Below are positions 6,414-23,770 of a stretch of 64,000 nt of DNA, piece after piece (the first letter of the stretch is position 1; every line of letters starts with the position of its first letter). This stretch comes from Yponomeuta sedellus (taxonomy: Eukaryota > Arthropoda > Insecta > Lepidoptera > Yponomeutidae), in NCBI GenBank assembly GCA_934045075.1, contig OW203732.1, positions 6,551,501 through 6,615,500 on the forward strand. The letters are read 5' to 3'. The notes beneath the pieces were generated by a model. It was not told where the DNA came from. It saw only the letters and a list, made by a program, of their open reading frames with translations, and made no database searches. The translations under genes were made by a program, and so were the position numbers.

Positions 6414-6650
6414 AGTAGGTAGTTATTGGGCATTCTGGCTCACCATTTTTCGACATCACGCTCACGGCTCCGCCGTTCACTCGATGCCAAAAAAAGGCGA
6501 TCCAACATGCCCAATAACTACGTTGGTCCAGTCGATAATTCCTGTTGCGGACAATAATTATGAAGTTAAACAAAAAAAAAATTCCAGGAGTTCAAGCATT
6601 GTATTACATAGATTTTTTTCTTCTTAAATACTACAATGACGAAAGATTTT
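6414..6650. repeat. Left terminal inverted repeat
   Basis: Starts AGTAGGTAGTTATTGGGC. About the first 150 bases match the right end almost perfectly (one C/T difference seen). The inner part differs by small indels, including about 9 extra bases near 6590. The match fades after GACGAAAGATTTT. Confidence 0.93.
6417..6526. repeat. Internal imperfect hairpin within the left TIR
   Basis: GTAGTTATTGGGCAT at 6418 returns inverted as ATGCCCAATAACTAC ending near 6524. The intervening halves (CTGGCTCACCATTTTTCG... against ...GGCGATCCAAC) are also roughly complementary, so a single strand could fold into a roughly 110-base terminal hairpin. The right TIR carries the same structure. Confidence 0.75.
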
Positions 6651-6655
6651 AGATT

Positions 6656-6714
6656 TGTTCGTCGTGTTATAATCAATCCATCCAGGAATTGAGATTGGTT
6701 ATAACACAACGAAC
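6656..6714. repeat. Hairpin just inside the left TIR
   Basis: GTTCGTCGTGTTATAATCAA and its near complement (TTGGTTATAACACAACGAAC) are separated by about 18 bases. Not repeated at the right end. Confidence 0.7.
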
Positions 6715-7539
6715 TAGATCGATTGATGAAATCCCAAAGCACTCTTTAACGCACCGTCCCGTTGGCGATGATCGATGCTAACCAGCGATGACAAAGTAAA
6801 ATTAGAGGTGGGTCCATAAATGTCTGTTCAAACAATTTCTCGGCATAATAAAAAGGGAACATTATTAGGGGTCCGAATAGTAACCAGGCAAACCAAGGAT
6901 CCATCAAGGATCATGTAGGTACCTACCTGCAAAACATTTTCATGGGTCACACTCGACACGTGTAACCTACATTTCGCAATCACATCCGCCAGCGCTCACA
7001 TACACAAGTTAAAAAATAATTGCAGATATGACTAAAATATTAATATGTTTAACAATTAAAATAAAGCTGCAGTCTGCTTATTCATCAATTTACATGGTTA
7101 TACACAGTGTTATTTAACTGAAAAATCTGCAAAATTAATTTACTTTGTTTATACGTGTAGAGTGTAGATTTGGTGATCTATCAATCAACCTACATTCTAT
7201 TCACTGTAAACTAAGTACTGAGAATATTTTAGTTCTTATAATTTTCAGGATTCGTAGAAATAGAAATATATTCAGATAGGTATTTACTAAATTTCAAATT
7301 AAACTAATTCTATAAAAAAAAAAAAAATTGTTGCTCAGTACGATAAGTAGGTACTTTGAAAATCTAAAGTTCAAAGTTATAAAAGGATCGTAAAAGCATA
7401 TAACACTATTAGTAATCGTATCATGGATTTCGCTTTTCGCGCCTACCGTTAATTTTATAACACCTTGTATTGTTTAATTTCATGCTAACATGATATGGAT
7501 ATTCCATTTTTATCCATGTATGGCACGGTTCGAAGGAAG

Positions 7540-7715
7540 GTTAATGCAGTGTATTACTAAGAATAATAATATAAATGCGAAAGTTTGTAAAGATGGATGG
7601 ATGGATGTTTGTTTCTCTTTGACTCATAACGGATTTGCCATGCCCAGGATTAACACATAGGCTACTTTTTATCCGACTACCATGCGAACTAAGTCGCGGG
7701 CACAGCTAGTGTTCA
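7540..7715 (+). mobile_element. Lep1-like non-autonomous Helitron fragment nested in the Polinton
   Basis: Contains ATATAAATGCGAAAGTTTGT near the start and ends GTCGCGGGCACAGCTAGT, both typical of the abundant lepidopteran Lep1 family. A second block (TGAACCGATTTTGATGAATG, about 7750) is also common in that family. A host repeat inside the element means this Polinton copy or its parent resided in a lepidopteran genome. Confidence 0.6.
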
Positions 7716-8770
7716 TGAATGAATGTTCCACTGTAGCGCCTAAACTGCTGAACCGATTTTGATGAATGATCGTGTGTCAATAAATTCGACGTAAGTGCGA
7801 GTGATAATGTAGTCTGGTTCCTCCTTTTTTAATAGTTAGGATAGGAACAATAGTTAGGTTATGTTAGGATGTTATTTTTTTTTTTTTTTAATATATATTC
7901 TTCTTTACTAATGTACGTGAATGAATGTATGTATTAAATTTCCTCTGTGCTTTCTCACTCGAATAAACAATATCTACCTATTTAATTTAATTTCAAAAGT
8001 AAGGACGTTTGTTTTAAAAAGAAGCATATCCATATCATACCAACGTCATGCAGCAAGATTCCAATCACTGCATGTGTCATGACTAAGCAATTCTATGTAG
8101 GTTGTGTACCCGCGTATTACATTTTTGCACCAAGCTAAATGCGCTTACGAAATCAAACTAGCGTTGGCTTGCGGCTTCGCTCGGGGGCTATGCTATTATT
8201 GTTAAAGAAATACATCCCTCCAGCTTTACCATCAGCGCGTCCAAAACCGAAAACATGAAGACTATTGTAATGTAATATAACATAAAATAGGTAGGTACAT
8301 AATATGGCTTAGTTTAGTAAAAGGTTTAGTTGGCTTATGGTTTAGTTGTTTAGTTTTGTAGTACTTATATTAATTTCCCATTTCTTCTGGATTTAAAATG
8401 GATGTAGGTAATTTATATAGCTTGATTATAAAAGATCAAACAAATATACATGATTACATTAGATTGAAGTCATCCCTTGGGTAGATTTAAAGAGACCCCT
8501 CTTATTATATTAAGAAGGGATTATATTATTGTATAATTACTTTGTGTATTATGTATTTTTTACTGCATCGTAGTAAAGTATCTATCACGAAAGTTTTGTA
8601 GAGCAATAGGCACATTGAAACTACCCAGACTACTTTTTGTCTTTATAGTGTCCTAGGATCTATAAAGGGACCACACCGTAGTTTGATACGCAATTTAATA
8701 TTAACCTTACGCCGTAGAATGAATATAAAAAAATAACCGTGAAATTCTTTAAGACAATACGTTCAATATT

Positions 8771-9024
8771 TTATATAGTGTCACACACACATGCGCACAA
8801 ACTCCTCGTCCGACACACCAGTGCATTGTCATCAAATATTTTTCCTTTAAAAACGTCTGAAATGTTACGAAAAAGTATCACTTCTCTTCGTGCTTCAACG
8901 ATCGTCTAGTCGCTCCGAGCTACTTGTGAAACCGCTGCTGAAGCTCTGCTGCCGTTGTGCCCTGCTGAACACCTTCTTCTGCCTGCTGTCAAGTTCTGCT
9001 TCCCTGCTTCTACACCTACTGAAA
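8771..9024 (+). promoter_or_regulatory. Putative promoter and 5' leader of the spliced gene
   Basis: A TATATA-like box at about 8771 precedes a CT-rich leader. The leader holds one short upstream ORF starting at 8862 (16 codons including its TAG stop at 8907-8909). The start codon used for the gene, 9025, is the next ATG that leads into a proper donor site. Weak evidence for the exact start site. Confidence 0.35.
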
Positions 9025-10536
9025 ATGTTCGTAAGTTTATTCAATATTTTTCTTGATTTTTGCATTCCATTCAAATAATATTTAATTATTTTTTATAATT
9101 ATCCATCCGTAGGCTCAATTTTTTTTTTTTTTTCTTTTTGCCTCGCTCACTTAGATTACTTTTTTAGTTTTTTAGCCACCTCATTTGCACTTTACTTCAC
9201 TTCATAGGTAACCATTATTTTTTTTTTTATTGATAACATTTTACTAATTTATACGTTTGTTTTCAGGTCTGACTCTGAATATTGCTACAACGCCGCGGCC
9301 CCCCGCAAATCGAAGGCTGCCTTCGAGTCGGAGGACGAGTATTTTGAAAGGTATTTATTCACTTAAAAAAATATATTTTGTTCTAAAAATTTATCGTTGA
9401 CCGGTTATGTGTGTTAGTTATGTTGTGTGTGTGTTTGTTTGTGTGGAGTGCTTTAGTATTTTTACATAGAGTACATAGATCACTCCAAACTAATTTAGAG
9501 TTATTTGCAAAATCAGTTTGAACCCATTTGTGTAAGGTCATATGGATGGTTTGTGATTAATTGATTATATAGGTATTAGTCCATGTGTGTAACTATGTTT
9601 GTACGGTGACAAGCGATTCGTGTTAACAGCGCAGGTGATAAATCAGTTGTACTAGGTATAATACAACAACAAACTGAGTTTTTTGATTTCTTTTGTCAAC
9701 AGTTCCAGGAGAGCCCCGAAGCCTGTCAAGCGGATTTCCCCAGCCGAGTATAAAGCGCGTGCTGCGGAATCTGATGCAGAATCTTCTGTAGTGAGGTAAC
9801 ATCTTACTACTTTCTTATGCAAACAATTTTTTTTTTTTTTTTTTTTACCTGTAAAGATTTAACACAGTTTCGTCAATATAGTGTTTTACCTATGAATAAC
9901 AGTTTTTCCGTTCTATTTCAGAAACAAAAAGAAAGGACCTGCTCCCGGCAAGCGTCAGCACGACTCAGACGACGAAGCGGTTCCTAGGTAAACAATTTTA
10001 TTATTATTATTCTATTAATGGCAGATTACGTGACATTCACCAAACAAGTCTTTTTCTTAATGTTTTATGAACAAACTAGCCCACAGTGGTCTTTATGCAG
10101 TGTTTGACATTATGGTATTTACAGGCGCAAGACCAAGGAAGCAGCGAAGCCAAAGGAGGCAAAGCGCAAGGCACCGCCGCGGCACAAGGCCAAGAGGAGC
10201 AGCAGCTGGCGCATCTTCGACTCCGACAGCGAGGAGGAGGGTGCCGCCAGACCGCCGCAGCAGCTGCGATCCAGCTACGCAAAGCGAGTCGCTGACGGAG
10301 TCGTGCGCCGCACTGCCCAGCTTGAGGGAGGTCTATTTTTAGACCTCAAACTGTACCAGGTGGACGACATTAAAAACGTTCACCCCCTCAAGCGGCACGA
10401 AAAGGCGGTGTTGGCGCTGAAATTCCGAGGGGAACCCGACTCGCCTGAGTTAGCTGCGCTGCAGCAGCTGTTGCAGCGGTGTAAGGCGAAGTTTGTGGAG
10501 GACGGGTATTTTTACGGCGATAAGGTAGATAGGTAG
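9025..10536 (+). CDS. Six-exon charged protein, function unknown (Polinton cargo gene)
   Basis: Exons inferred from splice signals: 9025-9030, 9176-9207, 9267-9350, 9703-9795, 9922-9987, 10125-10536. All introns are GT-AG, donors include GTAAGT, and acceptors follow T-rich tracts. Exon lengths sum to 693 nt (230 codons plus stop) with no in-frame stop. From exon 2 on every junction is phase 2, usually splitting an Arg codon (AG|G or AG|A). Exons 3, 4 and 5 (84, 93, 66 nt) are symmetric, and each ends in an acidic patch (SEDEYFE, AESDAESS, HDSDDEAV); exon 6 opens with a Lys/Arg/Ala-rich run and then FDSDSEEEG. The last ~90 residues look globular (GGLFLDLKLYQVDDIKNVHP). GC-rich codon use contrasts with the AT-rich viral genes. 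The basic and acidic blocks would suit a nucleic-acid-binding or phospho-regulated nuclear protein. I recognise no family. The exon 1-2 assignment is the least certain. Confidence 0.72.
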
Positions 10537-10568
10537 AAAATTTTGTTAGTCACTCTTGTAGTTGTAAG

Positions 10569-10574
10569 AATAAA
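10569..10574 (+). terminator. Polyadenylation signal AATAAA
   Basis: AATAAA 33 bases after the stop of the spliced gene and about 140 bases before the polymerase start. It suggests the two genes are separate transcription units. Confidence 0.6.
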
Positions 10575-10715
10575 AATATGTGTTAGTTTGTATTTATTCT
10601 TTGTTTTATTTTTGTATGATTGTGGCCGTACGATATAATAATAATAATACTAGGTTTGTCTCTTTTCGTACTTTCACAGCTTTACAAAGCAAAGTAAATT
10701 CATATACACATCAAT

Positions 10716-13700
10716 ATGCCTAATAATAATTCAATATATTGTTCGGTATGTGATATCTCAGTTAAAAGTAGAGCTTTTTCCTCCCATTTGCGAAGCACTG
10801 TACATAAAAATAACAATGCTGTTAAGAAATGCGATGGTGTTGAGAAAGTATTATCCGCATTTCGTAACCGCATTGCCACTTACAGAGTGAGACCTCGTTC
10901 GGACAGCGAAGACGTCGACGAATCGAGCCCACCATCAATGTTTATTCGTTCACTGCGTAGTCAAGTGCGCCAGCTGATTAACGCACGACTTGAATCTTTT
11001 GACAGCGTAAAAGCGAATTTTGAACTATTCGCCGAGTTTACGCTGCCAAAAAATGATAGTAGTGAAGTTAAATCGTTCGCTACCGGAAACATCGTAATTC
11101 ATAAGAACTACGACTTCAATGAAATGTTTAAAAAGGTTGTCGAACAAATAGTTGCTGGTATCGACGAATTTCAGGAGAGAGATAGTGGTTGGACTTTTGT
11201 AGCTAATTCATATCTAGAGGTTAACATCAACAAGTATAATCCTCTGCGAGCGTCAGGGTTTATCGATCTTCCAAGAGCTATAAAATTAAAACATGCATGT
11301 GTCAATATCCAAAACGCTGACCAATTCTGCTTTTTGTGGTGCATTATGGCAGCTTTATTTCCTGCCCAAAAAAATTCAAACCGAACATCGTCATATCCTC
11401 ACTATGATACTTTGTTAGATACGAGACACATGACTTTCCCGGTGGGCTTCAGGGATGTCAGGGTGTTTGAAAAGAATAATAGCAATATTAGTGTAAATAT
11501 TTACGGCCTCAAAAACAACAAAACGATTGTTGGGCCGTTATACAAGTCCATGCAAAAAAAGCAAAATCATATCAATTTATTGTTCTTGGAAAGCGGTAAA
11601 AATACGCATTACTGTCTCATAAAAAATTTAAGTCGGCTGGTCAGGAATCAAGTTACGAAACATCATAGTAAAATATCTTTTTGCGATGATTGCATGATTT
11701 TCTTTTCTGACGATAATAAACTAAACAATCATAAATGCAGTGGTGTCAAAACTGCTCTGCCAGAAAAGGGAACATTAATCCAGTTTAGACATTTTGAGCG
11801 TATGCAAGATATGCCATTTGTAATCTACGCTGATTTCGAATCAATGTTACAACCCACTTCGGATGACCAAAAATCAAAAAATACAACAAACCTACAAAAA
11901 CACATTCCAGTCGCATTTGGTTATTACATCGTATGTTCTTATGATACATCTCTCAATCGGTATGTTTCTTATCGAGGACTTGATTGTGTTCAAGTTTTTT
12001 TAAAAAAATTGGGTGCTGACGTATTGAGGTTAAGTAGAGTATTAAAAAATCATATTGATATGTTACCCCTTACAGAGAGCGAGTTAAAAAGTTTTACTGA
12101 ATCTCAAATTTGCTATCTTTGTAGTAAGTTACTGTTCGAAGATAAAGTAAAAGATCACTGTCACTTGACAGGAAATTATCGTGGTGCGGCTCATTCCTAC
12201 TGCAACCTTCAATTTAAACTTCCACAGTTTTTACCGGTTTTCTTCCACAACTTGTCAGGCTATGACTGTCATTTATTTATTAGAGAGTTAGGTGAACTAC
12301 CAGGCAACATAAATGTTATCGCAAAGACAAAAGAAAATTATGTATCCTTTACTAAATTTTTTCCAATCGATAAACAAGAGTTTATGGCGGTGCGCTTTGT
12401 GGATTCTTTAAAGTTTTTAGGTACAAGTTTAGAAAAAGTTGCAGAAAATCTCTCAGTTCATGATTTTATTTATTTGTCACTTTTTTACCCTAACAAACGG
12501 CAATTTGATTTGTTAAGGCGTAAAGGAATTTATCCATATGAGTACATGAGTAATTGGGAATGTTATAAAGAAAAAGCAATACCTCCTCGCGAATGTTTTT
12601 ACAGTAGTTTAACTGACGAAACTATTTCAGAATCTGACTACGATCACGCTAAACAGGTTTGGAGGACATTTCATTTGTCAAACCTCGGTGAATACACTGA
12701 CTTATACTTAAAATCTGACGTGTTATTGTTAACTGATATTTTTGAGAGTTTTAGAAGTACGTGCAAAACTAATTACAGATTAGATCCTGCCTTTTATGTT
12801 ACGGCACCCAGCTTAAGTTGGGATGCTATGTTATTAAAAACCGGAGTCAAACTAGAACTAATCGAAGATTTGGAAATAATACGAATGATACAACGCAGTA
12901 TTCGCGGAGGAGTTTGCTTATGTTCTACTCGTTATGCTTGTGCGAATAATAAGTATCTACCTAACCACGATCTCACAACTCCAGATAATTATTTACTTTA
13001 TATAGACTGTAATAACTTATATGGGTATGCTATGTGTAGTTATCTACCCCACTCTAACTTTGAATTAATTGAGAACCCACCATTCCAAGTTTCTGATATT
13101 CTCCTTTTAAAAGATGACGCTAAAGTGGGTTACATATTTGAGGTCGATTTAGAATACCCAGAAACTTTGCATGATTTTCATAATGATTTGCCTTTCTGCC
13201 CCCAAAAATTTGCACCACCTGGATCACAAACATGTAAATTGATACCGAACTTATATGACAAGTATAACTATGTCATACATTACATTCATCTCAAGACTTG
13301 CCTCAAACATGGCCTGAAATTGAAAAAAATTCATAAAGCTATTAAATTCGATCAAGGTCCTTACTTAAAACAATACATAGATCTGAACACTGAATTGCGG
13401 CAAAAAGCTAAGTCACAATTCGAACAGGACTTTTTTAAGTTGTTAAATAATAGTATTTTCGGCAAAACATTAGAGGACACAGAAAAAAGACTAAATGTAA
13501 AGCTGGTGAACCAGTGGTCTGACGTCAGCAATAAAACTAAAAAAATCTTTTGTGCAGAACAACTAATAGCCAGGCCTAATTTTCATAGCTCGTCAGTATT
13601 CACTGAAAACTTTGTAGCAATTCAACTAAGACCTGAAAAAATTACACTGGATAAACCTATTTACATTGGTTTTTCAGTGCTAGAAATATCCAAAAGCCAT

Positions 13701-14252
13701 ATGTATGATTTTCATTACTCTATTATGAAACCTTTTTATGGAGCTAATTTAAAAATGTGCTATACGGACACTGATAGTTTTCTATACTCAATACAAACGA
13801 ATGACATTTACTGGGATATAAAGAAACATTTCAAACAGTATTTTGACACCAGCAATTACTCTGAGAATAATATTCATGGTATAACTAAACAAAATAATAA
13901 AGTTCCCGGATTGTTCAAAGATGAGTTAGAGGGGCAGCTTGTAACTGAATTCGTAGGATTGAGGTCTAAATTATACTGCATCAAAACTGAAAATACGGAA
14001 CTCAAAAAGGCTAAGGGTACGAAAAAGTCTGTCGTAAAAAAAATTAGTTTTAATGATTACAAGACCGTGCTAGTCGATAGCAGCTTAGTCAGAAAGAAAA
14101 ATATGATGTTTAAATCCTTAAAACATGAAATATTTACACAGTCACTTAATAAAGTATGTCTTTCCTATAATGATAATAAGCGAATTATACTAAGAAATAA
14201 AATTGATACTCTATCGTACGGCCACAAATCGCTTTACTTTAATAATATATGA
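10716..14252 (+). CDS. polB: Protein-primed family B DNA polymerase (pPolB)
   Basis: An 1178-aa uninterrupted protein that would copy the linear element from protein-primed ends. The exonuclease motifs are YADFES (371-376), NLSGYD (512-517) and YLKSD (664-668). The polymerase motifs are DCNNLYG (764-770), K908 through NNSIFG (911-916) and YTDTDS (1016-1021), so all catalytic acids are present. Accessory parts: an N-terminal C2H2-like finger (C9, C12, H24, H30), a second Cys/His cluster (C323, C326, H339, C341), and between Exo I and Exo II a recombination-endonuclease-VII-like insert (CYLC 466-469, DHCH 480-483, then a CN pair), as seen in many Polinton polymerases. The block around residues 196-235 (CFLWCIMAAL) is conserved-looking but unassigned. 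ATG 10716 is the first start; AATAAA follows at 14369. No intron or frameshift is seen. Confidence 0.95.
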   Translation: MPNNNSIYCSVCDISVKSRAFSSHLRSTVHKNNNAVKKCDGVEKVLSAFRNRIATYRVRPRSDSEDVDESSPPSMFIRSLRSQVRQLINARLESFDSVKANFELFAEFTLPKNDSSEVKSFATGNIVIHKNYDFNEMFKKVVEQIVAGIDEFQERDSGWTFVANSYLEVNINKYNPLRASGFIDLPRAIKLKHACVNIQNADQFCFLWCIMAALFPAQKNSNRTSSYPHYDTLLDTRHMTFPVGFRDVRVFEKNNSNISVNIYGLKNNKTIVGPLYKSMQKKQNHINLLFLESGKNTHYCLIKNLSRLVRNQVTKHHSKISFCDDCMIFFSDDNKLNNHKCSGVKTALPEKGTLIQFRHFERMQDMPFVIYADFESMLQPTSDDQKSKNTTNLQKHIPVAFGYYIVCSYDTSLNRYVSYRGLDCVQVFLKKLGADVLRLSRVLKNHIDMLPLTESELKSFTESQICYLCSKLLFEDKVKDHCHLTGNYRGAAHSYCNLQFKLPQFLPVFFHNLSGYDCHLFIRELGELPGNINVIAKTKENYVSFTKFFPIDKQEFMAVRFVDSLKFLGTSLEKVAENLSVHDFIYLSLFYPNKRQFDLLRRKGIYPYEYMSNWECYKEKAIPPRECFYSSLTDETISESDYDHAKQVWRTFHLSNLGEYTDLYLKSDVLLLTDIFESFRSTCKTNYRLDPAFYVTAPSLSWDAMLLKTGVKLELIEDLEIIRMIQRSIRGGVCLCSTRYACANNKYLPNHDLTTPDNYLLYIDCNNLYGYAMCSYLPHSNFELIENPPFQVSDILLLKDDAKVGYIFEVDLEYPETLHDFHNDLPFCPQKFAPPGSQTCKLIPNLYDKYNYVIHYIHLKTCLKHGLKLKKIHKAIKFDQGPYLKQYIDLNTELRQKAKSQFEQDFFKLLNNSIFGKTLEDTEKRLNVKLVNQWSDVSNKTKKIFCAEQLIARPNFHSSSVFTENFVAIQLRPEKITLDKPIYIGFSVLEISKSHMYDFHYSIMKPFYGANLKMCYTDTDSFLYSIQTNDIYWDIKKHFKQYFDTSNYSENNIHGITKQNNKVPGLFKDELEGQLVTEFVGLRSKLYCIKTENTELKKAKGTKKSVVKKISFNDYKTVLVDSSLVRKKNMMFKSLKHEIFTQSLNKVCLSYNDNKRIILRNKIDTLSYGHKSLYFNNI

Positions 14253-14752: not shown

Positions 14753-14850
14753 GTATGTGTTTTAAGGATTTACTTGCATTTGCAATTTGTGTGTATAGGA
14801 TACAACTGAAGGCATGTTTCGAGTTCTAATTTATGCTTTTATTACAGATA

Positions 14851-15228
14851 ATGGACCCTTCCGACTTATGGTTCCCAAATGCGCAGCCATTTGAAGATTA
14901 CAACGATGCACTGGAAATATCGATCCCCGCTGGACAGGAGAGCAAGGAAAAGAAAAAGAAGACGCAAAAAAACAAAATGGAATTGCGAAAAAAAGTACAA
15001 GCATCCTCCTCATACGTTATTACAAAAACGCCAAGAAGGGCCCTAAAACGCATCAAGATTGAAATATTTAACATCAGCGGAGGGCAAACGTCAGCGACCT
15101 CGGAAGATAGTGTGGTTAGTGCGCAATACATAGTGAGTGAAGTAGTGGATGACATAATGGACAAGTCCGAAAAATTGGTTAATGAAATTTGTAAGAAACT
15201 TTGTAATGACTCTTATAATGATCTTTAA
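14851..15228 (+). CDS. Small acidic/lysine-rich protein, unknown
   Basis: 125 aa from ATG 14851, which lies three bases after a strong acceptor (TTTTATTACAG), so the transcript is probably spliced in its leader. The N-terminus is acidic and aromatic (MDPSDLWFPNAQPFEDYNDA), then comes a Lys-rich segment (about 34-58; KEKKKKTQKNK), then a Ser/Thr-rich middle and an acidic amphipathic C-terminus (VSEVVDDIMDKSEKLVNEIC). AATAAA sits directly after the stop. No family is recognised. The opening acidic residues with a basic patch recall the spliced gene's composition but not its sequence. A core or regulatory protein is possible; this is inference only. Confidence 0.55.
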   Translation: MDPSDLWFPNAQPFEDYNDALEISIPAGQESKEKKKKTQKNKMELRKKVQASSSYVITKTPRRALKRIKIEIFNISGGQTSATSEDSVVSAQYIVSEVVDDIMDKSEKLVNEICKKLCNDSYNDL

Positions 15229-15405: not shown

Positions 15406-15891
15406 TTATATCTCAATTTTATTATCTATAATCCATTGTTTAACACATAAAACGGTTCTTAATGTACAATTTTTATTTTTATGATCTAAACAACTAAAAT
15501 TATTCTTATTATACTTTTTAAACAGCTCTAGCAAATTAGGACACCCCTTTTCTTCCACATTTATAACTGTAATATTATCACACAAGTCTCTGATCCATCT
15601 AGTTTTTTCTAAACCTTTCACTAGCACCTGTCTTTTTTCTAAATATGGTTTGATGATTTTATGGAACTGAAGATAATCTATATGTCCTTCAGACCATCTA
15701 TATCCAAAGTTACGCTCGATCCACTTTACATGTCTCTTTTCAAAATCAGTTAAATATCTATACGGCCACGGAGGTTTTATAAGAAATACTTGAGTGTTTT
15801 CAGCAGTAGCTAATGCAAGTTCTTTAATGATAAAGTGGTTTCTATCATTTTTAAATCCATGCACATCAACAATTAGGGTATTTGCGTTCAT
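15406..15891 (-). CDS. Uncharacterised 161-aa protein, conserved-looking Polinton gene
   Basis: The start codon overlaps the stop of the capsid gene upstream (ATGA, 15888-15891), the tightest junction in the element. Visible features: an N-terminal strand-like IVDVHGF with Asp, then KELALA, a PPWPYRYL motif, WIERNFGYRW, VLVKGLEKTRWI, and a C-terminal cluster CPNLLEL...C..H....C (about 128-150) that could bind zinc. The arrangement of strands with acidic residues could be an RNase H-like fold, but I cannot show catalytic residues. The last gene of the minus-strand series; an AATAAA on the minus strand lies about 80 bases beyond its stop. Confidence 0.75.
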   Translation of the reverse strand: MNANTLIVDVHGFKNDRNHFIIKELALATAENTQVFLIKPPWPYRYLTDFEKRHVKWIERNFGYRWSEGHIDYLQFHKIIKPYLEKRQVLVKGLEKTRWIRDLCDNITVINVEEKGCPNLLELFKKYNKNNFSCLDHKNKNCTLRTVLCVKQWIIDNKIEI

Positions 15892-17105
15892 GATAATTTT
15901 CTTACAATATTACTTAACGGTTTATATTCGATTAAACATTCGTTCAATATTAGACAATATGCAGATGTTTGATCTGGTATTTCTACTTCGCTTTCTAGCT
16001 CCACACGCACATTAACTACTGGTCCAGATTTAAGGTGGTCAGTTTGTCTTGAACAATCAATTACAAAAAGAGGTGCAAACTCCTCGAACTCTTTTGCACT
16101 TAACAAGGGTTCACTCCTTCGTCCGTAATACGACTGTTGGAATCTAGCGTACTGCTCGTATAATATAGCTATGTTGTTGTTACTAAAACTAACATTCATA
16201 TTGTCGTATGGAAAGTATGTGGAGTTCAGATATACCTTGACATCACGTAAATTGCAATGATCAAATCGAGACATGTCTTTAACTGCGTCATTCTTTCGGT
16301 TGGTTTGTAAACCTATAATAACAAACCTTGGCTTTTCAACTTGAGATGACGTTTTGATGGACCAAGTATGTTTTGTAGTCTTCGGCAATAAAGGGTACTC
16401 GTATAAATCCCAATTTCTGAAAGCTACTTGAACAGGTCTATCTTTTTCCAACAATCTAAGAAGATTAATTCTTTCTGTATCAGAAACTTTCACATGTGGA
16501 ACTCGCCATACAATTTTATGAATAACAACGTCATCCACAAATTCTCCCGTATTTAATTGTAATCCATTAACGTTCGTATTGCTTCGGAGCAAAACCAGTT
16601 CATGCTTACAATTAATTATTACTTTTTTATAATCTTCTGCGAATCCTAAAATATTACTTAAAGGTATTGAAGCTGAAAATTTTCCGGAGTGTACATTCTT
16701 AGTGCCATTTATATCCCATCCCCAAACCTTAGACATCTTGGATTCGCTTTCGTTCATAGATAAAATGGACTTCATAGTCGTAGTTAGTCCTGCATTTTTA
16801 ATTCTGTCTATTTCAACTCCGTTTAACTCATATCGTATATCTTGAAAAAAGAACAGCAGTGAATTATTTGTAAACTGAACACTAGAAGCCTTCTCCGATT
16901 CCGTTTCTCTCTTAAACACATTGACAACACCTTCCAAATATAATGTGCTAGCTGACGGCAGTATGTACAAATCCTGTTGGTTAATCGGTATACGAATTTC
17001 ATCGTTTCTATTGAAACTGGTCACGTAAGGTTTATAGGAATGAATTTCGATTCCATCAATGCTATTGTCATAGACAGGTGTACTCGAAATGTCTAGTATA
17101 CTCAT
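15888..17105 (-). CDS. Probable major capsid protein (double jelly-roll)
   Basis: 405 aa, no signal peptide or membrane segment, rich in predicted beta strands. Features include EIRIPINQQDLYILP (about 37-51), a LFFFQDIRYELNGVEIDRI block (about 84-102), VVIHKIVWRVPHV, WDLYEYPLLPKTTKHTW and a C-terminal SAYCLILNECLIEY. Its length suits a minimal double jelly-roll (about 400 aa) and it lies directly downstream of the penton-like and protease genes, as capsid genes do in Polintons. Role: forms the hexameric capsomers of the particle. The assignment rests on context, size and recollection of the family; a structure prediction would settle it. 4-nt overlap with the next gene. Confidence 0.7.
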   Translation of the reverse strand: MSILDISSTPVYDNSIDGIEIHSYKPYVTSFNRNDEIRIPINQQDLYILPSASTLYLEGVVNVFKRETESEKASSVQFTNNSLLFFFQDIRYELNGVEIDRIKNAGLTTTMKSILSMNESESKMSKVWGWDINGTKNVHSGKFSASIPLSNILGFAEDYKKVIINCKHELVLLRSNTNVNGLQLNTGEFVDDVVIHKIVWRVPHVKVSDTERINLLRLLEKDRPVQVAFRNWDLYEYPLLPKTTKHTWSIKTSSQVEKPRFVIIGLQTNRKNDAVKDMSRFDHCNLRDVKVYLNSTYFPYDNMNVSFSNNNIAILYEQYARFQQSYYGRRSEPLLSAKEFEEFAPLFVIDCSRQTDHLKSGPVVNVRVELESEVEIPDQTSAYCLILNECLIEYKPLSNIVRKLS

Positions 17106-17244: not shown

Positions 17245-17904
17245 TCATTTTTTCTTAAGATGTAAATATAGTTGCAGCTCTTCTCCACGTAAGTTAATTA
17301 AATGATTATTAATATCCAGTATCCTTATATTTATGCTACTTATATTATTTTGGTTAACAGGAAAATAAATGATGTTCTTAGGAATTTCTATTAATCTGTA
17401 ACCTGGTGGCACGTTAGGCGCAAACTCGTGAATAATGTGGCTAGATACACCGTTTATATATGATCCACTTACTATATCACATTCTATCCTCACCACAGTA
17501 GTTGAAAGAATGTTGACAGGATACTGTGACTCGTGTAATTCTTTTTTTTTGCCAAAGCCTAATAAGTTGCCGAGACCATTTTTTTTCTCAAAATGGATGT
17601 CTTTGGAGCTAAACAAATACGTTTTCAAAGTATTATTGTTACAGAATAGATTGAAATTGGCGTCTTTAATTTTTCCTTTAAGGTAATCTTTTATATCTTG
17701 CAATTCATATGTTCCCTCAGGTATTTCACAAAAGTCTTTATCCCCGTAGTAGAACTTGTTATTCTTACTTTCAATGTTTGGAATTGAATTAAAAGTAGAT
17801 AGATAAAGTAGAGCACACTCATATTCACCCTCTAGTTGCAATGGTGGGGAATAATTTGTTGTTAGCAGTGACTCATTGCCAGTTATTGATAGTGTGAATG
17901 ACAT
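17245..17904 (-). CDS. Penton-like minor capsid protein (single jelly-roll)
   Basis: 219 aa from the first ATG (17904; the frame is open further upstream but without ATG). Opens MSFTLSITGNESLLTTNYSP, then YECALLYLSTFNSIPNI, a hydrophilic middle with a GLGNLLGFGKKKE loop, and a conserved-looking PPGYRLIEIPKNIIYFPVN near 170-190. Size and position between protease and major capsid match the Polinton minor capsid protein that fills the vertices. A roughly 140-base spacer separates it from the capsid gene. Confidence 0.7.
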   Translation of the reverse strand: MSFTLSITGNESLLTTNYSPPLQLEGEYECALLYLSTFNSIPNIESKNNKFYYGDKDFCEIPEGTYELQDIKDYLKGKIKDANFNLFCNNNTLKTYLFSSKDIHFEKKNGLGNLLGFGKKKELHESQYPVNILSTTVVRIECDIVSGSYINGVSSHIIHEFAPNVPPGYRLIEIPKNIIYFPVNQNNISSINIRILDINNHLINLRGEELQLYLHLKKK

Positions 17905-17936: not shown

Positions 17937-18275
17937 CTAATTTATAGATTTATTCCAAAAGTCTTGCAAGAATTTTAAACATAAATGTCCACAGTTAAGA
18001 GTATTAAATGATTGATACGTCATGTAATTATAATACAAATTACCATTATTTAGATAATTCAAAACCTCTACTGGTGGCTTCAAATTTCCAAAACTATCAA
18101 AATATTCACAATAGTCTTTAAGTTTTACATAGGCTACCCAATGTGTCCCTTCGTTGGTGGAGTTATCTAAATTAACTACTCCACATTCTGTACTCCTTGG
18201 TTTGCTTGGTAATGCATCTTTCATAAACACTCCTCGAAAATATGGTATATCCTGTGCATATTCTAGTATATCCAT
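17937..18275 (-). CDS. Adenain-like cysteine protease (maturation protease)
   Basis: 112 aa. The catalytic set is in the expected order: H45 (GTHWVAY), D60 (YFDSFG), Q87 (TYQSFN) and C94 (NCGHLC), so the Ulp1/adenain-type active site is complete. It would cleave capsid and core precursors during particle maturation. The protein is short for the family. The frame stays open about 20 codons upstream of ATG 18275 without another Met, so either the start is truly here or a non-AUG start extends the N-terminus over the spacer toward the phospholipase gene. Confidence 0.88.
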   Translation of the reverse strand: MDILEYAQDIPYFRGVFMKDALPSKPRSTECGVVNLDNSTNEGTHWVAYVKLKDYCEYFDSFGNLKPPVEVLNYLNNGNLYYNYMTYQSFNTLNCGHLCLKFLQDFWNKSIN

Positions 18276-18304: not shown

Positions 18305-19009
18305 TTAATAGTTTTTTGAACTTGTGACAAATAATCCGCTACCGGTTCGGTAGGGTTTGATATATAAACCTTTGCCTAAAGCAATTGTTTCCTTATTAGC
18401 ATTTTGTGCTATTTTATAGTCGTTTACTGTCTTCGCTATACCAGCCACACCTCCAGCTAAACTCCCTAGTGCTGATAACCCAGCGAATATTGGTATCAAA
18501 GGTAAAATTCCACCATGCTTAGGAATAGGAATTATTCTCGGTATATTAACATATTTCTTATTAGCTGTCAGCTTCCTTGCAGCCGAGTAAGCAGCTTTTA
18601 TAGCACTTTTACAATTTTTTGGTTTTTTTTTCTTGACATGAGTTTTAATATTAGTCACCAAAGAATTAAAATGTTTCATCCCTGCACCTGATTTTAATTT
18701 TGTCTTCATGACTTTACTAACTAGCCATGATGCAATTTTTTCACCGTTTTGAGCATCTTTCGATTTAAGCCTTCTCTTTGCCATGTCTAATAAACGCAAA
18801 TCAGCTTCGTGTCTGTTGGATAAGTCGTTAAATTTTGCATATGCGATATCGTGATGCATACAAGCGTCATCTAATTGGTTCACACCTCTATCTCCGCGTG
18901 ATAATCGTTTCTCCAACTTTGTCCCTGGGCCACAATAATTGTAACCGGGTAGATGTAATTCAAAGGGCAAATTATTTATTAAAGTATTAACTAGTCCTCC
19001 ACCTTTCAT
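18305..19009 (-). CDS. Phospholipase A2-domain capsid-associated protein with pX-like tail
   Basis: 234 aa. Residues 14-80 form a parvovirus-VP1-type phospholipase A2 domain: LPGYNYCGPGT (20-30, calcium loop) and DACMHHDIAY (48-57) with the catalytic His53-Asp54 pair. A Lys-rich middle follows (KKKKPKNCK, about 126-134). Then comes a Pro/Gly-bordered hydrophobic segment (166-192, GGILPLIPIFAGLSALGSLA...) like the membrane-active or core peptide region of adenoviral pX/pVI-type proteins, and a short polar tail. In parvoviruses this enzyme breaches endosomal membranes during entry; a similar role here is inference. It lies between the integrase and protease genes. The hydrophobic segment could equally be a membrane anchor. 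Confidence 0.85.
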   Translation of the reverse strand: MKGGGLVNTLINNLPFELHLPGYNYCGPGTKLEKRLSRGDRGVNQLDDACMHHDIAYAKFNDLSNRHEADLRLLDMAKRRLKSKDAQNGEKIASWLVSKVMKTKLKSGAGMKHFNSLVTNIKTHVKKKKPKNCKSAIKAAYSAARKLTANKKYVNIPRIIPIPKHGGILPLIPIFAGLSALGSLAGGVAGIAKTVNDYKIAQNANKETIALGKGLYIKPYRTGSGLFVTSSKNY

Positions 19010-19035: not shown

Positions 19036-19965
19036 CTAGACTATAGCCTTTTTATCAATCCAACTGTTTTCACTCTTATGTAAGCCCAACCATTTTACAA
19101 GCAACTTATTACCTTTTCTCCTTAAAACCTTTTCAATTAAATAAACATTAGGATATTTGGTCTTTTGTAGTTCTTGCTCGTAAAAACAACCTAAAATTGA
19201 TTGATGTCGTAGATCTTCTATATCATAAGTTATAGGGTTCGTTTTGTTTATTTTCTTTATGGTAAATATTTCAGTAGACCAATTGGGAGTATACCCCTTT
19301 TGAAATTCACCTTTGTACTTGCTGATCCTAACGTAGTCACCAACATTACATTTAGGTTTTCTGGTTTTAAGGGCACTGCTATGGAATTTATTAATATTAT
19401 TCATAACATTATCTTCATTCAGTTTACTTACATCTTTAGGCTTATGTTTAATTATACGATGTTTTGTACTATTGTAAGATTTAACAACACTTTGTAATGG
19501 CTTACCAATCCATTTGTAACTACCTTGGAGATGAAATAATTTAAATAATTTCGTTTTCAACGTTCTAATTAATCTCTCTACTATCGAAGCTTTTTTAACG
19601 GAGTAAGTAGAATAATGATTAATTTTGTAAGAATTCATTATTTTTTTAAATTCATCGTTGTAAAATTCGGTTCCCATGTCAGTCTGTAAATTACTAGGAC
19701 ATCTTCCACTTTTTTGCAAAATACTTTCAAATGCATGAGATGATTCGGTTTTAGTCTTTGTTTTTAACGGTATAGCCCACGCATACTTTGAAAAACAGTC
19801 TATTACAATCAGAATAAACTTAAATCCATTATTGTGTATCTTCAATGAAATTAAGTCGATAAGATCTGCTTGCCACAAATCATCTATACCTTTAAGATGA
19901 ACAGAACGTCGTAGGAAATTTTTTCTTGCATTTTTATGAATTTCATTAACCACTTGTTTCTTCAT
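19036..19965 (-). CDS. int: Retroviral-type integrase with C-terminal chromodomain
   Basis: 309 aa. The DDE core residues are D34 (LWQADLIDL), D96 (LQTDMGTEF) and E130 (ASIVERLIRTLK). A further region has the GDYVRISKYKGEFQKGY SH3-like stretch (about 222-240). The last ~38 residues form a chromodomain (VYLIEKVLRRKG...LLVKWLGL...SWI). It joins the TIR ends to host DNA with 6-bp staggering, consistent with the CGCAAT duplication. The chromodomain probably guides it to modified histones. ATG 19965 follows an in-frame TGA two codons upstream, so the start is firm. No separate N-terminal zinc finger is visible. Confidence 0.93.
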   Translation of the reverse strand: MKKQVVNEIHKNARKNFLRRSVHLKGIDDLWQADLIDLISLKIHNNGFKFILIVIDCFSKYAWAIPLKTKTKTESSHAFESILQKSGRCPSNLQTDMGTEFYNDEFKKIMNSYKINHYSTYSVKKASIVERLIRTLKTKLFKLFHLQGSYKWIGKPLQSVVKSYNSTKHRIIKHKPKDVSKLNEDNVMNNINKFHSSALKTRKPKCNVGDYVRISKYKGEFQKGYTPNWSTEIFTIKKINKTNPITYDIEDLRHQSILGCFYEQELQKTKYPNVYLIEKVLRRKGNKLLVKWLGLHKSENSWIDKKAIV

Positions 19966-20071: not shown

Positions 20072-20428
20072 TTACTTGTTCATATCTCTCAATGATATTA
20101 TATGATCTTTAACAATGTTATTCACTTCAATTTTCGAACATTTATTTTCTAATTCTTTCTGCAACGCTTGCAATTGAGTCCTTAAAATCCTAAGGTCTGC
20201 AAGAATGTCTTGTTTTTTACAACATTTTTCAATGTTTTGGTCAACATACTCTTTACTTACAGCTTCATCTCCATCTACAGCCCATATCAATCCTTTTAAT
20301 CTACTCTGTTTTAAATCATAATTTCCGGAATCATTTTGAAGCAGCAATTTGTTTAAAGGTGTAATTTCAAATGAATCCAACAAACGTAATCGTTTATGTA
20401 CATGATGACCAAATTTATCGATGTTCAT
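20072..20428 (-). CDS. Small coiled-coil protein, unknown
   Basis: 118 aa from the first ATG (20428). The N-terminus reads MNIDKFGHHVHKRLR, the middle contains SRLKGLIWAVDGDEAVSKEYV, and residues about 70-100 show heptad-spaced Leu/Ile (DILADLRILRTQLQALQKELE), predicting a coiled coil. It could trimerise as a fibre or spike-like virion part or act as a scaffold; this is inference from the coiled coil and the neighbourhood. No domain is recognised. Confidence 0.7.
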   Translation of the reverse strand: MNIDKFGHHVHKRLRLLDSFEITPLNKLLLQNDSGNYDLKQSRLKGLIWAVDGDEAVSKEYVDQNIEKCCKKQDILADLRILRTQLQALQKELENKCSKIEVNNIVKDHIISLRDMNK

Positions 20429-20491: not shown

Positions 20492-21175
20492 TCAATCAAT
20501 ATAACCACGTTTCTTACATTCAGCTGTGATAAACGTAATATCATTATCTAGTCCAGTGTGACCAGCTTCTTTTGTGGCTATCAATAATTCCAAAGTTTTC
20601 ACTAATTCATTCTGTTGCTCCAAAGCCCAATCCATATTTTTATTAGGTTCTTTTATCAATTGCATATTTTTTCCTTTTTCGTGCAATAATGGTTTTACAA
20701 CTTGTAAATATTTAAATCCTCTGCTTCTTTTGATTGATTTCTTAGGATCATATCTGCATCGGTGAGCATTTGTGTCCATTAATATGGTCTTGTAATTCTG
20801 TTTATCACTTTCTGTAACAGTACTTAAATCAGGTCTTTTTTTGTAGAGTAATTCAACAAGACCACTAGTTTTCTTATAAGAATTTCTTGCTATATACAGC
20901 ATGTTATCTCTTATAAAAAGTGGTACTGACCCAATCATAGGTTTTCCTTTTTCCATTCTTACCCCGTAAGGTACATTATTTAATAATACCGGTGACTTTT
21001 CCTTTATATTATTTTTGATACATTGATCAAGTTCTAAATCACTGAGAACCTGCTTATTAGTCATATGTTCCAATATTTGTTTCGATGTGTTCGGTGAAGA
21101 AGCACTAGTTTCACTTAGATTTCTTTTCTTGGCTTGTGTAGACTGCAGCGTAACTGCTATAGCAGAATTGTTCAT
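20492..21175 (-). CDS. DUF8207-like protein, copy 1
   Basis: 227 aa. A disordered Ser/Thr/Lys-rich N-terminus (1-60) is followed by the domain from about 67: NVPYGVRMEKGKPMIGSVPL, SYKKTSGLVELLYKK, LMDTNAHR and FKYLQVVKPL, ending TKEAGHTGLDNDITFI. The same blocks occur in order in the neighbouring 321-aa protein. The domain is one I associate with DUF8207 proteins of insect and cnidarian genomes; function is unknown. The neighbours suggest a virion core or DNA-binding role. Confidence 0.75.
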   Translation of the reverse strand: MNNSAIAVTLQSTQAKKRNLSETSASSPNTSKQILEHMTNKQVLSDLELDQCIKNNIKEKSPVLLNNVPYGVRMEKGKPMIGSVPLFIRDNMLYIARNSYKKTSGLVELLYKKRPDLSTVTESDKQNYKTILMDTNAHRCRYDPKKSIKRSRGFKYLQVVKPLLHEKGKNMQLIKEPNKNMDWALEQQNELVKTLELLIATKEAGHTGLDNDITFITAECKKRGYID

Positions 21176-21398: not shown

Positions 21399-22364
21399 CT
21401 AATTCAATAAACCATATTCATTCAGTTCCTCTATAATTGACAGTATTTCATTATCAAGTCCAGTGTTACCAGCATCGCGTGATGCAATCAATAGTCGTAA
21501 CCTTTCCACTAACTCATTTGGATCATCCCAATAAATATAGTCCACATTTCTCTTCCACTTTTTTAATGTTGGCAATCCTGAACCTGTAGGAAGTTTTTCC
21601 GGAGTTTTGACAAAGTGAGGTTTTACGAATTCCAAATATTTTTTCCCTTTATTACTTTTTATTGGTTTACTTGGATCATTATCTCTTCTATGCACGTTTG
21701 TCTCCAAAAGCATTGACTTGTAGTTAAGTTTATCTTTCTCAGTTATTAATGCTGAATCCGGTGATCGTTTTGTTATTAATTCCATCAAACCAGGAGTTTT
21801 GTGGTAGTTGTGTTTTCCTATCATAATGTTTTTATCTGTGATAGATACTGTTACTGACCCCATCATAATTTTACCCTGAACATGACTAATACCAAAAGGA
21901 ACGTTTTTAATGTATTCTGATGATAACGACCATGAGGAACAATCAGGATCACTGCTGACTGCTGAATGTTCTGATATATTTTTGTCACCTATGTAAGTGT
22001 TTTGTTTGTCATATTCTTTATCAGAAATTCCGTCATCTGATTCCACTGAGGGATCTACACTTTGAGAAGGAGTTTGAAAATTATCAGATTTTCTATTCCT
22101 TTTCATCGTTTCATCTAAAGTACTCCAATCATATGGTTCATCTTCATTATAATCCTGAGGTAAGTCTTTAATATTTTCTTTCGGTATAGGTTTTATATTT
22201 TCTTTATGTTTGACTGCTTCACTTATTTGATTGAGGGGATTGATAACTGGTTTAAAAATATTTTCTAGAGATTTTTCGTGATCGGATTCAATACATCGCA
22301 TTTTCTTGAATTTCTTCTTCACTGCATCTGCAGCAAGAACAATTTGTTTTAATTGTTTATCCAT
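21399..22364 (-). CDS. DUF8207-like protein, copy 2 (long form)
   Basis: 321 aa from the first ATG (22364). A long charged N-terminal half (basic 1-22, acidic/Ser-rich 70-145) precedes the same domain as the neighbouring gene: NVPFGISHVQGKIMMGSV, NYHKTPGLMELITK, LLETNVHR, KKYLEFVKPH and SRDAGNTGLDNEILSI. Two diverged tandem copies suggest duplication followed by specialisation, the long copy having gained or kept an extended tail. Also contains a GSGLPTLKKWKR segment that could be a basic binding loop. Confidence 0.78.
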   Translation of the reverse strand: MDKQLKQIVLAADAVKKKFKKMRCIESDHEKSLENIFKPVINPLNQISEAVKHKENIKPIPKENIKDLPQDYNEDEPYDWSTLDETMKRNRKSDNFQTPSQSVDPSVESDDGISDKEYDKQNTYIGDKNISEHSAVSSDPDCSSWSLSSEYIKNVPFGISHVQGKIMMGSVTVSITDKNIMIGKHNYHKTPGLMELITKRSPDSALITEKDKLNYKSMLLETNVHRRDNDPSKPIKSNKGKKYLEFVKPHFVKTPEKLPTGSGLPTLKKWKRNVDYIYWDDPNELVERLRLLIASRDAGNTGLDNEILSIIEELNEYGLLN

Positions 22365-22455
22365 GTTAAATATAATCAATTTTGCTTCTCGTTTTAACAA
22401 GTTTACTGATATGAATGCAAAAGTACCACGTGCTGCATCCTTATATATTTTCTAG

Positions 22456-23148
22456 TTATGAATTAAATACTACGAATGTGTCAAATTGCTTACGATAGCA
22501 ACCTTGGTTTTTCTCACAATCTTTATTTATTACTAAATAGTTGTAAGGCTCACTCCATATTGTTGCACACAATTTCCGAAATTCATGCCAAGACATATCT
22601 GTGCTAACATGTTCATCATATGCGTGACGCAAGTTAATGTCATCTTGTTTGAAGAGAACAATCAGGTTTGCATTATCTCTAACAAGTTGTTTTGGTATTT
22701 TGGTGTAAGTTTGGTTTAAATAAAAGCTATCAATATTTTTGTGTCTACCCATTGCAAAATAATCACGCATGTTGTTTTGATTTTCACATGCAACATCATC
22801 AAATATTATTATAGAATTAGATTTTGCTTCATTTGTACTGAGAACTTGCTGATTTGCATGAAACTTCATGAAAGATACACCTGGTACTAATCTCAAAACA
22901 TTTTCTAGAAAAGCATATTTTGGTTGATGTAAAGTTTTTGAATACACGTAAACGTTTTTATAGCGCAGACCATTTTCATGCAAAAGAAGCCCAATCATTA
23001 GGTTAGTTTTGCCGCAATTAGATGGCCCACAGATTATGCATCTGATAGAATTAGGTAGAAGAGATCCATGACGAAATGTTTGTTGTATATATTCCGTAGG
23101 ACATAACAAGTTGAAACGTAATGTTTTTTTTTGTTTTAAGAATTTCAT
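22456..23148 (-). CDS. FtsK/HerA-type DNA-packaging ATPase
   Basis: 230 aa from ATG 23148. Walker A is GPSNCGKT (44-51). Walker B is IIIFDDV (116-122), with the acidic pair expected of A32-like packaging ATPases. A downstream NQTYTKIP motif (about 148-155) fits the sensor position. It would pump the linear genome into capsids. It is the outermost right-hand gene, about 50 bp inside the right TIR, and presumably first from a minus-strand promoter near the TIR. Confidence 0.92.
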   Translation of the reverse strand: MKFLKQKKTLRFNLLCPTEYIQQTFRHGSLLPNSIRCIICGPSNCGKTNLMIGLLLHENGLRYKNVYVYSKTLHQPKYAFLENVLRLVPGVSFMKFHANQQVLSTNEAKSNSIIIFDDVACENQNNMRDYFAMGRHKNIDSFYLNQTYTKIPKQLVRDNANLIVLFKQDDINLRHAYDEHVSTDMSWHEFRKLCATIWSEPYNYLVINKDCEKNQGCYRKQFDTFVVFNS

Positions 23149-23193
23149 TTGAAACAAGAAGCGTTTTATTTGAGGATCGACCTTAAACTAAAA

Positions 23194-23420
23194 AAAATCT
23201 TTCGTCGTTGCAGTATTTAAGAAAAAAATAATCAAGGTAATACAATGGCTGGAATTTTTTTTGTTTAACTTCATAATTATTATCCGCAACAGGAATTATC
23301 GACTGGACCAACGTAGTTATTGGGCATGTTGGATCGCCTTTTTTTGGCATCGAGTGAACGGCGGAGCCGTGAGCGTGATGTCGAAAAATGGTGAGCCAGA
23401 ATGCCCAATAACTACCTACT
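23194..23420. repeat. Right terminal inverted repeat
   Basis: Reverse complement of the left TIR, ending ACT at 23420. Contains the same internal terminal hairpin. The plus-strand open frame at 23183-23425 is an artefact of the TIR. Confidence 0.93.
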
Positions 23421-23768: not shown

Positions 23769-23770
23769 GG

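What the first reader, a model, noticed from the sequence alone, without database searches (positions are those of the whole stretch)
6414..23420. Structurally complete, uninterrupted Polinton/adintovirus with exact 6-bp TSDs
TSD CGCAAT, AGT...ACT ends, nearly identical outer TIRs and a full set of replication, integration, packaging, capsid and protease genes without a visible stop or frameshift. Most animal copies are broken, so an intact one suggests recent integration and perhaps an element still able to move or make particles.
Basis: partly seen in the sequence, partly recalled or inferred. Interest (0 to 1): 0.9.

Follow-up and report, generated by a model that had tools for sequence, protein, structure and literature searches.

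The report
Young Polinton provirus with hairpin ends
A 17-kb virus-like mobile element (a Polinton) sits whole in a likely moth genome that holds at least 21 more copies with the same ends, and a sister family there has lost all or part of its DNA polymerase gene in five different deletions, one of them now found at 58 places, which suggests that such copies likely borrow polymerase from complete ones.

Summary
The empty site exists: 10 of 10 fetched repeat copies carry CGCAAT once. The element is young, but neither unique nor pristine: 22 end pairs share its termini, 16 of them 16.95-17.10 kb long, and this copy alone lacks four penton residues that 120 of 120 listed relatives keep. End-to-end similarity is no clock here, because fixed differences between the two ends are inherited. 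A sister family (B; 220/216 ends) differs by 0-6 sites per 3.4 kb among seven copies. Of 220 B junctions found, 162 are undeleted and 58 share one 4.7-kb deletion that removes pPolB; four more distinct deletions hit pPolB. Twenty of 21 pol-less pairs have a listed intact integrase, and ten of ten tested have distinct, exact target duplications. The terminal repeats examined fold into ~100-125-nt hairpins whose stem covaries across four lineages (9 of 21 pairs changed on both sides), always in one orientation. Best reading: capsid-encoding proviruses, likely copied by protein priming, polymerase supplied in trans to pol-less derivatives. Movement today and particles are untested.

The parts
6408..6413 (.). 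Left target site duplication CGCAAT
   Evidence: uninterrupted single hexamer at paralogous empty sites, 10 of 10
6414..23420 (.). Whole integrated Polinton (17,007 bp), family A
   Evidence: 16 of 22 end pairs lie within 16,950-17,100 bp
6414..6650 (+). Left terminal inverted repeat: 166 nt at 99% plus 54 nt at 89%
6419..6521 (.). Palindrome in the left TIR, folds into a ~103-nt hairpin, z -5.1
   Evidence: covariation over four lineages
10108..10536 (+). Conserved open segment, likely last exon of a spliced gene (34% identical over 104 aa to family B)
   Evidence: five homologues
10716..14252 (+). pPolB-like DNA polymerase, 1178 aa
   Evidence: Pfam finds only an Endonuclease VII-like stretch below cut-off; identified by size, position, recalled motifs and correspondence to Sf Maverick POLB, which has the same endonuclease VII-like annotation
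14833..15228 (+). 131-aa frame, probably an exon preceded by an acceptor-like CAG; 38% identical in B
15406..15891 (-). 161-aa protein (by place and length ORF8 of Sf Maverick)
15888..17105 (-). Major capsid protein, double jelly roll, 405 aa
   Evidence: PF21738 E 2.8e-110; 78% to 'hexon [Spodoptera moth adintovirus 1]'
17245..17904 (-). Penton-like protein, 219 aa, with a private in-frame 12-bp deletion
   Evidence: model (pLDDT 65) matches mavirus penton 6g42 at E 7e-5
17937..18275 (-). Adenain/Ulp1-like protease, 112 aa
   Evidence: PF02902 E 0.015, below cut-off; His-Asp-Cys motifs recalled
18305..19009 (-). PLA2-like minor virion protein, 234 aa
   Evidence: PF08398 E 7e-15
19036..19965 (-). 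Integrase: rve core and C-terminal chromodomain, 309 aa
   Evidence: PF00665 E 2.4e-10; PF00385 E 8e-4, below its bit cut-off
20072..20428 (-). 118-aa frame, 59% identical in B
20492..21175 (-). 227-aa protein, likely paralogue of the next; both match one 316-aa frame in B
21399..22364 (-). 321-aa protein (by place ORF2 of Sf Maverick)
22456..23148 (-). Packaging ATPase, A32/FtsK-like, 230 aa
   Evidence: PF04665 E 1.5e-7
23194..23420 (-). Right terminal inverted repeat
23313..23415 (.). Palindrome in the right TIR, same orientation as the left one relative to its end
23421..23426 (.). Right target site duplication CGCAAT
6078..6407 (+). Left part of the target: open frame of a high-copy interspersed repeat (LINE-like, label recalled)
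   Evidence: no Pfam match, no reverse-transcriptase match for a paralogue
23427..24121 (+). Right part of the target repeat and its probable (TATG)n tail

Best explanation
This is a 17,007-bp integrated Polinton (an adintovirus, now Eupolintoviridae) that was likely inserted by its own integrase into one copy of a high-copy repeat, and it is one of at least 22 same-ended copies that likely arose recently when a capsid-encoding parent was copied by its own, likely protein-primed, DNA polymerase. Shown: exact ends and TSD, empty sites, open frames, near-identical sister copies at different sites with different TSDs, and capsid and penton genes better conserved between families than the polymerase. 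Inferred: protein priming, integrase action and a particle stage. In sister family B five different deletions removed all or part of the polymerase gene, and the commonest of these forms stands at 58 places; the likely reason is that polymerase made by complete copies replicates it in trans. The covarying hairpin inside the terminal repeats is likely a cis-acting replication or integration site; its single orientation speaks against parvovirus-like rolling-hairpin replication.
For: Ends/TSD/TIR. Empty site. Copies: 48 exact ends, which I pair into 22 elements + 4 single ends. Capsid gene: 20 full-length copies at 93-100%, 11 of them (window included) identical over 1218 bp, 18 of 20 open. pPolB: 12 of 15 near-full A rows without a stop, 17 of 17 listed B rows without a stop (best-scoring rows only). 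TSDs: 12 of 13 A pairs, 9 of 10 full-B pairs, 10 of 10 pol-less B pairs match. Constraint A against B: dN 0.20-0.26 in capsid, penton, protease, PLA2, integrase and ATPase against 0.37 in pPolB, dS saturated in most genes; position 3 differs 3-4.5 times as often as position 2 in capsid, penton, protease, PLA2 and ATPase, 2-3 times in integrase and pPolB. Pol-less forms: 58 exact junctions against 162 undeleted ones; four further deletions; an identical, open integrase is listed for 20 of the 21 pol-less pairs. Hairpin.
Against: pPolB gives no Pfam DNA polymerase match and no PDB match, so its identity rests on motifs and on correspondence to published Sf Maverick POLB. The protease match is below cut-off. 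This copy carries a private penton deletion. The 131-, 161-, 227- and 321-aa frames are not well conserved (dN 0.35-0.58). No transcript, particle, small-RNA or polymorphism data exist here. One A pair and one B pair have non-matching TSDs. The four rarer pol-less forms were not tested for TSDs, and the 21st pol-less pair (11,877 bp) is not in the integrase list.
Confidence: 0.85

Rival explanations
1. The window element is an ordinary dead fossil: an old insertion whose open frames survived by chance.
For: It has a private in-frame penton deletion; several A copies carry stops or frameshifts.
Against: Sister copies differ by a median 0.14-0.21% over 4.2 kb; two private substitutions in this copy; 18 of 20 capsid genes open; TSD still exact.
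Confidence: 0.07
2. The many identical copies come from segmental duplication or assembly error, not from transposition.
For: Identity is extreme: the 124 listed (best-scoring of 2586 candidates) B integrase copies are all 100% identical in protein.
Against: TSDs differ from copy to copy and match within 31 of 33 tested pairs; the 58 pol-less junctions lie on 28 contigs; empty repeat sites exist for the window insertion.
Confidence: 0.02
3. The terminal hairpins prime replication as in parvoviruses (rolling hairpin), so the element replicates like a hairpin-ended virus.
For: Long palindromes at the ends, z -5.1 to -9.9 in four lineages, covarying stems.
Against: Rolling-hairpin replication inverts the palindrome (flip/flop; recalled): 0 of 26 A ends and 0 of 39 B ends are inverted; the two B ends keep five fixed differences; the palindrome starts about 5 nt inside the end.
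Confidence: 0.06
4. The pPolB interval is a deletion hot spot, and pol-less copies spread only because the burst is so young that cis genes are not yet needed; nothing special is shared in trans.
For: Left breakpoints of four of the five deletions lie within about 215 bp (7431-7646), next to an A/T-rich tract.
Against: Right breakpoints spread over 1.9 kb and one deletion lies wholly inside the gene; the main pol-less form reached 58 sites, with distinct TSDs in 10 of 10 tested, which needs replication by some polymerase.
Confidence: 0.3

Closest known systems
Sf Maverick 1 and 2 (Spodoptera frugiperda, KY042018/KY042019; PMC5803895, section 11 part 1 and passages read)
   Same: Gene order ATP-ORF2-INT-CAP(PLA2)-PRO-ORF6-ORF7-ORF8 with POLB; POLB on the opposite strand as in Sf Maverick 2; capsid 78% identical to S. 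frugiperda ORF7, penton 71% to ORF6
   Different: In what I read the paper reports supercontigs and two lineages, not copy number, TSDs or pol-less forms; the window element has a second ORF2-like paralogue; terminal hairpins were not compared because the records are not held here
Adintoviruses / Eupolintoviridae (alpha and beta clades; PMC11071296 and PMC12451622, passages read)
   Same: rve integrase with C-terminal chromodomain, hexon-like DJR capsid, penton, protease, ATPase
   Different: Clade not placed by a tree here; Starrett 2021 is not held
Vertebrate Mavericks (PMC8097293, passages and section 7 read)
   Same: 6-bp TSDs, AGT-type ends, size near 17 kb, core genes under purifying selection there
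   Different: [quoted passage not shown] here one genome holds 162 B copies with the undeleted pPolB-side junction (not all checked for open frames); module orientation differs
Bidnaviridae (PMC4061559, passages read)
   Same: Insect viruses with a Polinton-type PolB and TIRs
   Different: Their repeats are stated not to form hairpins; descended from parvoviruses according to that paper
Parvovirus-type terminal hairpins (recalled)
   Same: Palindrome of about 100 nt at each end
   Different: No flip/flop, not at the very end, no NS1-like Pfam match in the 12 frames

Membership tests
Polinton/Maverick | Terminal inverted repeats with AG(T)-type ends and 6-bp TSD | tested here: met
Polinton/Maverick | rve integrase | tested here: met
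   PF00665 E 2.4e-10
[quoted passage not shown]
   1178-aa frame at the expected place, recalled polymerase motifs; no Pfam polymerase hit, no PDB hit
Polinton/Maverick | DJR major capsid protein and penton | tested here: met
   PF21738 E 2.8e-110; penton by fold, mavirus penton E 7e-5 on a pLDDT 65 model
Polinton/Maverick | Adenain-like protease and A32-like packaging ATPase | tested here: inconclusive
   ATPase met (PF04665 E 1.5e-7); protease only PF02902 E 0.015, below cut-off
Adintoviridae/Eupolintoviridae | Integrase with C-terminal chromodomain | tested here: met
   PF00385 in A at E 8e-4, below its bit cut-off; in B at 1.3e-6, above it
Adintoviridae/Eupolintoviridae | Hexon recognisable by BLASTp against family members | tested here: met
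   78% over 100% of the query to hexon of Spodoptera moth adintovirus 1
Adintoviridae/Eupolintoviridae | PolB with N-terminal OTU-like domain | not tested
   Only recalled Cys/His motifs; no structure of pPolB was predicted
Adintoviridae/Eupolintoviridae | Virions | not testable with these tools
   sequence only
Parvoviridae | NS1/Rep superfamily 3 helicase | tested here: not met
   No such match among the 12 element frames scanned with Pfam; the spliced left arm was not scanned beyond one segment

The most novel reading that the evidence does not exclude
A natural helper-satellite system inside one animal genome: Polinton DNA polymerase is a shared, trans-acting good, so pPolB has been deleted independently at least five times and one pol-less, capsid- and integrase-bearing form has spread to 58 sites, while a terminal hairpin, conserved by compensatory changes across four lineages and never seen inverted, is the cis-acting handle that every copy must keep.
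Probability: 0.45. Interest if true: 0.8.

Novelty: new variant of a known kind. Interest (0 to 1): 0.62.

Why it matters
Polintons sit near the root of many eukaryotic DNA viruses, yet particles of theirs are hardly ever seen (PMC8097293, abstract opening). A genome with about 240 young copies in two families, plus pol-less derivatives, turns the questions into countable ones: which products act in trans, which sites act in cis, and do capsids matter for spread. The covarying, non-inverting terminal hairpin is a concrete structural prediction that can be checked in every published Polinton. The case also warns against dating Polintons by the similarity of their two ends.

Tried and rejected
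Tried without result: MCP relatives in IMG/VR, single protein and alignment (no confirmed relative). PDB by sequence for pPolB, MCP and penton (nothing convincing). PHROGs on 8 of the 12 proteins (only endonuclease VII-like, transposase and one unnamed family). Pfam on the target repeat (no reverse transcriptase match, so 'LINE-like' is recalled from the look of the frame). Splicing of the 131-aa frame onto the upstream exon through a shared GTRAGG site was considered and dropped: out of phase in both families (my reading). TIR identity as a clock was rejected. In one search the first B table was distorted by one copy (L058), probably by an insertion; only the first 3430 positions are used. 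Dropped rows: L038 was left out of the divergence table (one gene interrupted); L049-L053 were not entered. A seeming absence of copies from contig C7 was checked and dismissed: C7 has only 45,946 bases.

Literature: ten searches. None of the listed titles and abstract openings described hairpins in Polinton TIRs or pol-less Polintons; 'hairpin' occurs 0 times in PMC8097293 and once, in the reference list, in PMC11071308. Starrett 2021, Kapitonov and Jurka 2006, Koonin 2024 and Jeong 2023 are not held, so these features may be in print there.
Full report
OBSERVATION. The element spans exactly 6414-23420 (17,007 bp), between two copies of CGCAAT. The outer arms are 166 nt at 99%, with a further 54 nt at 89%. 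Twelve open frames of 112-1178 aa lie between them.

TARGET. Joining the host flanks gives 228 bp that match 40 of 40 scored places (1843 candidates) at 97-99%, 38 of them over exactly 228 bases. In 10 of 10 fetched places the hexamer CGCAAT stands uninterrupted, with 2-3 mismatches in 120 bp. So the element interrupted one copy of a high-copy repeat. That repeat looks like the end of a LINE reverse-transcriptase frame followed by a (TATG)n tail, but Pfam does not confirm the label.

FAMILY A. The exact 20-nt end occurs 48 times in the 657.5-Mb assembly, which I pair into 22 elements and 4 single ends; 16 of 22 pairs are 16,950-17,100 bp long, and the rest are 17.3 to 38.2 kb. Of 13 pairs whose flanks were at hand, 12 have matching TSDs, none shared between copies. 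The search with the capsid gene (40 scored of 370 candidates) gave 20 full-length copies at 93-100%: 11 of them, the window's own included, are identical over 1218 bp, and 18 of 20 are open. pPolB is free of stops in 12 of the 15 near-full A rows listed (a best-score list, so damaged copies may be missing). Over 4.2 kb around the capsid gene 17 copies differ by a median 0.21%, the 14 closest by 0.14%. The window copy has two private substitutions there.

DAMAGE IN THIS COPY. The penton frame is 12 bp shorter than in the other A copies aligned. The four missing residues are filled in 120 of 120 listed relatives and are moderately conserved. That the protein is a penton rests on its place, on identity to ORF6 of S. 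frugiperda and on a low-confidence model (pLDDT 65) that finds mavirus penton (E 7e-5) and a MELD penton. Whether the deletion disables it is unknown. Copies without it exist.

FAMILY B AND POL-LESS FORMS. A second end variant occurs 220/216 times with 0/0 in the control. Among 48 pairs in the part of the list shown, 24 are 16.36-16.42 kb and 15 are 11.70-11.72 kb; the others are 11,813 (twice), 11,877, 12,163, 13,762, 13,956, 16,504, 16,540 and 24,275 bp. The one 11.7-kb copy compared equals a 16.4-kb copy at 99.86% over 4.2 kb but lacks the pPolB frame. Genome-wide, the junction of this deletion occurs 58 times, on 28 contigs, and the undeleted junction 162 times (one mismatch was allowed; all 58 and all 100 listed undeleted ones are exact). 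Four other deletions were mapped in five copies: 7466-12054 (two copies), 7431-11668, 9081-11525 and 7646-10284, against 7510-12194 for the main form and 8552-12109 for the pPolB frame. Two of the rarer ones also cut into the 131-aa exon, and the main one removes the last few codons of the upstream exon. If the five deletions were placed at random between the TIRs, all would fall inside 7140-12200 with probability about 3e-6; the bounds were chosen after seeing the data, and the milder statement, all inside 7140-16180, has probability 0.015. TSDs match in 10 of 10 pairs of the main pol-less form and in 9 of 10 full pairs, and differ from copy to copy; the rarer forms were not tested. Of the 21 pol-less pairs (15 of the main form, 5 of the rarer ones) are among the 124 listed integrase matches, which are all identical and open; the 11,877-bp copy is not (a best-score list of 2586 candidates). 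Seven copies of B differ at 0-6 of about 3.4 kb.

AGE. With a recalled butterfly rate of 2.9e-9 per site and generation, the divergences correspond to about 0.6e5 generations for five full B copies and 2-4e5 for A, and about 1.6e5 (roughly 0.2-6e5) for the window insertion. The rate comes from no call, and changes made during replication would make the insertions younger.

CONSTRAINT. Between A and B protein identity is 0.71 for capsid, 0.72 penton, 0.70 PLA2-like, 0.68 ATPase, 0.67 integrase, 0.62 protease, but 0.57 for pPolB. dS is saturated in most genes, so ratios are not given except 0.06 for capsid; position-3 differences are 0.51-0.62 against 0.13-0.23 at position 2 for these seven genes. 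Capsid and penton are thus kept at least as well as the enzymes of replication and integration, which fits a history with particles. It does not show particles today. Other frames are looser: dN/dS 0.26-0.37 for the 118-, 227- and 321-aa frames, dN 0.44 and 0.58 for the 161- and 131-aa frames.

TERMINAL HAIRPIN. From about nt 6 of the end an imperfect palindrome (103 nt in A, up to about 125 in the others) folds with z -5.1 in A (both ends), -8.8 in B, -9.9 in C (L113), -6.7 in D (L115) and -7.2 in an older A relative (one end each for B, C, D and the relative). In the outer 21 pairs of A-D, 78 of 84 cells pair, 9 pairs have a change on both sides, and sliding the partner by 1-3 columns drops pairing to 30-44% (four sequences only, aligned by hand-cut arms). 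Copying of one arm from the other could produce the same pattern without selection on a structure; that too would need the hairpin to form. All 26 A ends and all 39 B ends examined lie nearer to one orientation than to the inverted one (three A ends shifted by small indels score 19-22 against 40-42). Of the 39 B ends, 19 equal one type, 19 differ from it at the same five sites and one differs at another site; in the 19 pairs compared each element has one end of either kind, and the kind follows the gene orientation read. So the two ends are not homogenised in each cycle. Rolling-hairpin replication is unlikely; end-by-end protein priming remains the best guess. The likely role of the hairpin, a binding site for the polymerase-priming complex or for the integrase, is inference.

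LEFT ARM. 6650-10700 has no long frame. One segment (10108-10536, +) is conserved with B (34% over 104 aa) and has five database homologues. Acidic repeated segments upstream suggest further exons (my reading). Transcripts are needed.

PLACEMENT. The nearest named relatives of the capsid protein are Spodoptera moth adintovirus 1 and S. frugiperda ORF7, then Chrysodeixis and Helicoverpa proteins, so the host is probably a noctuid-like moth; this was not tested. Gene order equals that of Sf Maverick apart from the extra ORF2-like and small frames. ICTV renamed Adintoviridae to Eupolintoviridae in 2025. Membership in Polinton/adintovirus is accepted although Pfam does not recognise pPolB and the protease is sub-threshold.

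VERDICT. The element is real, young and complete in structure, a new member of a known kind, with one lesion of its own. What lifts it to a variant is the company it keeps and what it shares with it: some 240 related copies in two young families, repeated loss of the polymerase, and covarying terminal hairpins. The last two may turn out to be general among insect Polintons.

Noticed in passing
G000:C5:5867702, C9:1649567, C19:17414726; L113, L115: At least two further Polinton lineages (pPolB 57-58% identical, open frames of 1178-1184 aa) share the same genome; the left ends read for C5 and C19 bear the hairpin.
   Followed up: partly
window 23772-24121 and 239-280: (TATG)n arrays of 87 and 10 copies; the long one is probably the tail of the interrupted repeat, since a paralogue (L061) has a like tail.
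   Followed up: partly
window 35895-57034: Twelve tRNA-like matches (Rfam, 30-40 bits) and six tRNA-Ser(GGA) plus one tRNA-Phe calls by ARAGORN in about 21 kb, two of the Rfam ones inside a 309-bp tandem array at 39725-40372: a tRNA cluster or a tRNA-derived repeat.
   Followed up: no
window 6650-10700: Four kilobases of the element without a long frame; recurrent acidic S/D-rich segments look like exons of a spliced gene.
   Followed up: partly
window 10716-14252, C-terminal end: The last five residues of this copy's pPolB are not matched in 14 other near-full A copies.
   Followed up: no
G000:C4:18165810-18182209 and C13:6139126-6156144: One B copy and one A copy have non-matching hexamers at their ends, perhaps recombination between copies.
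   Followed up: no
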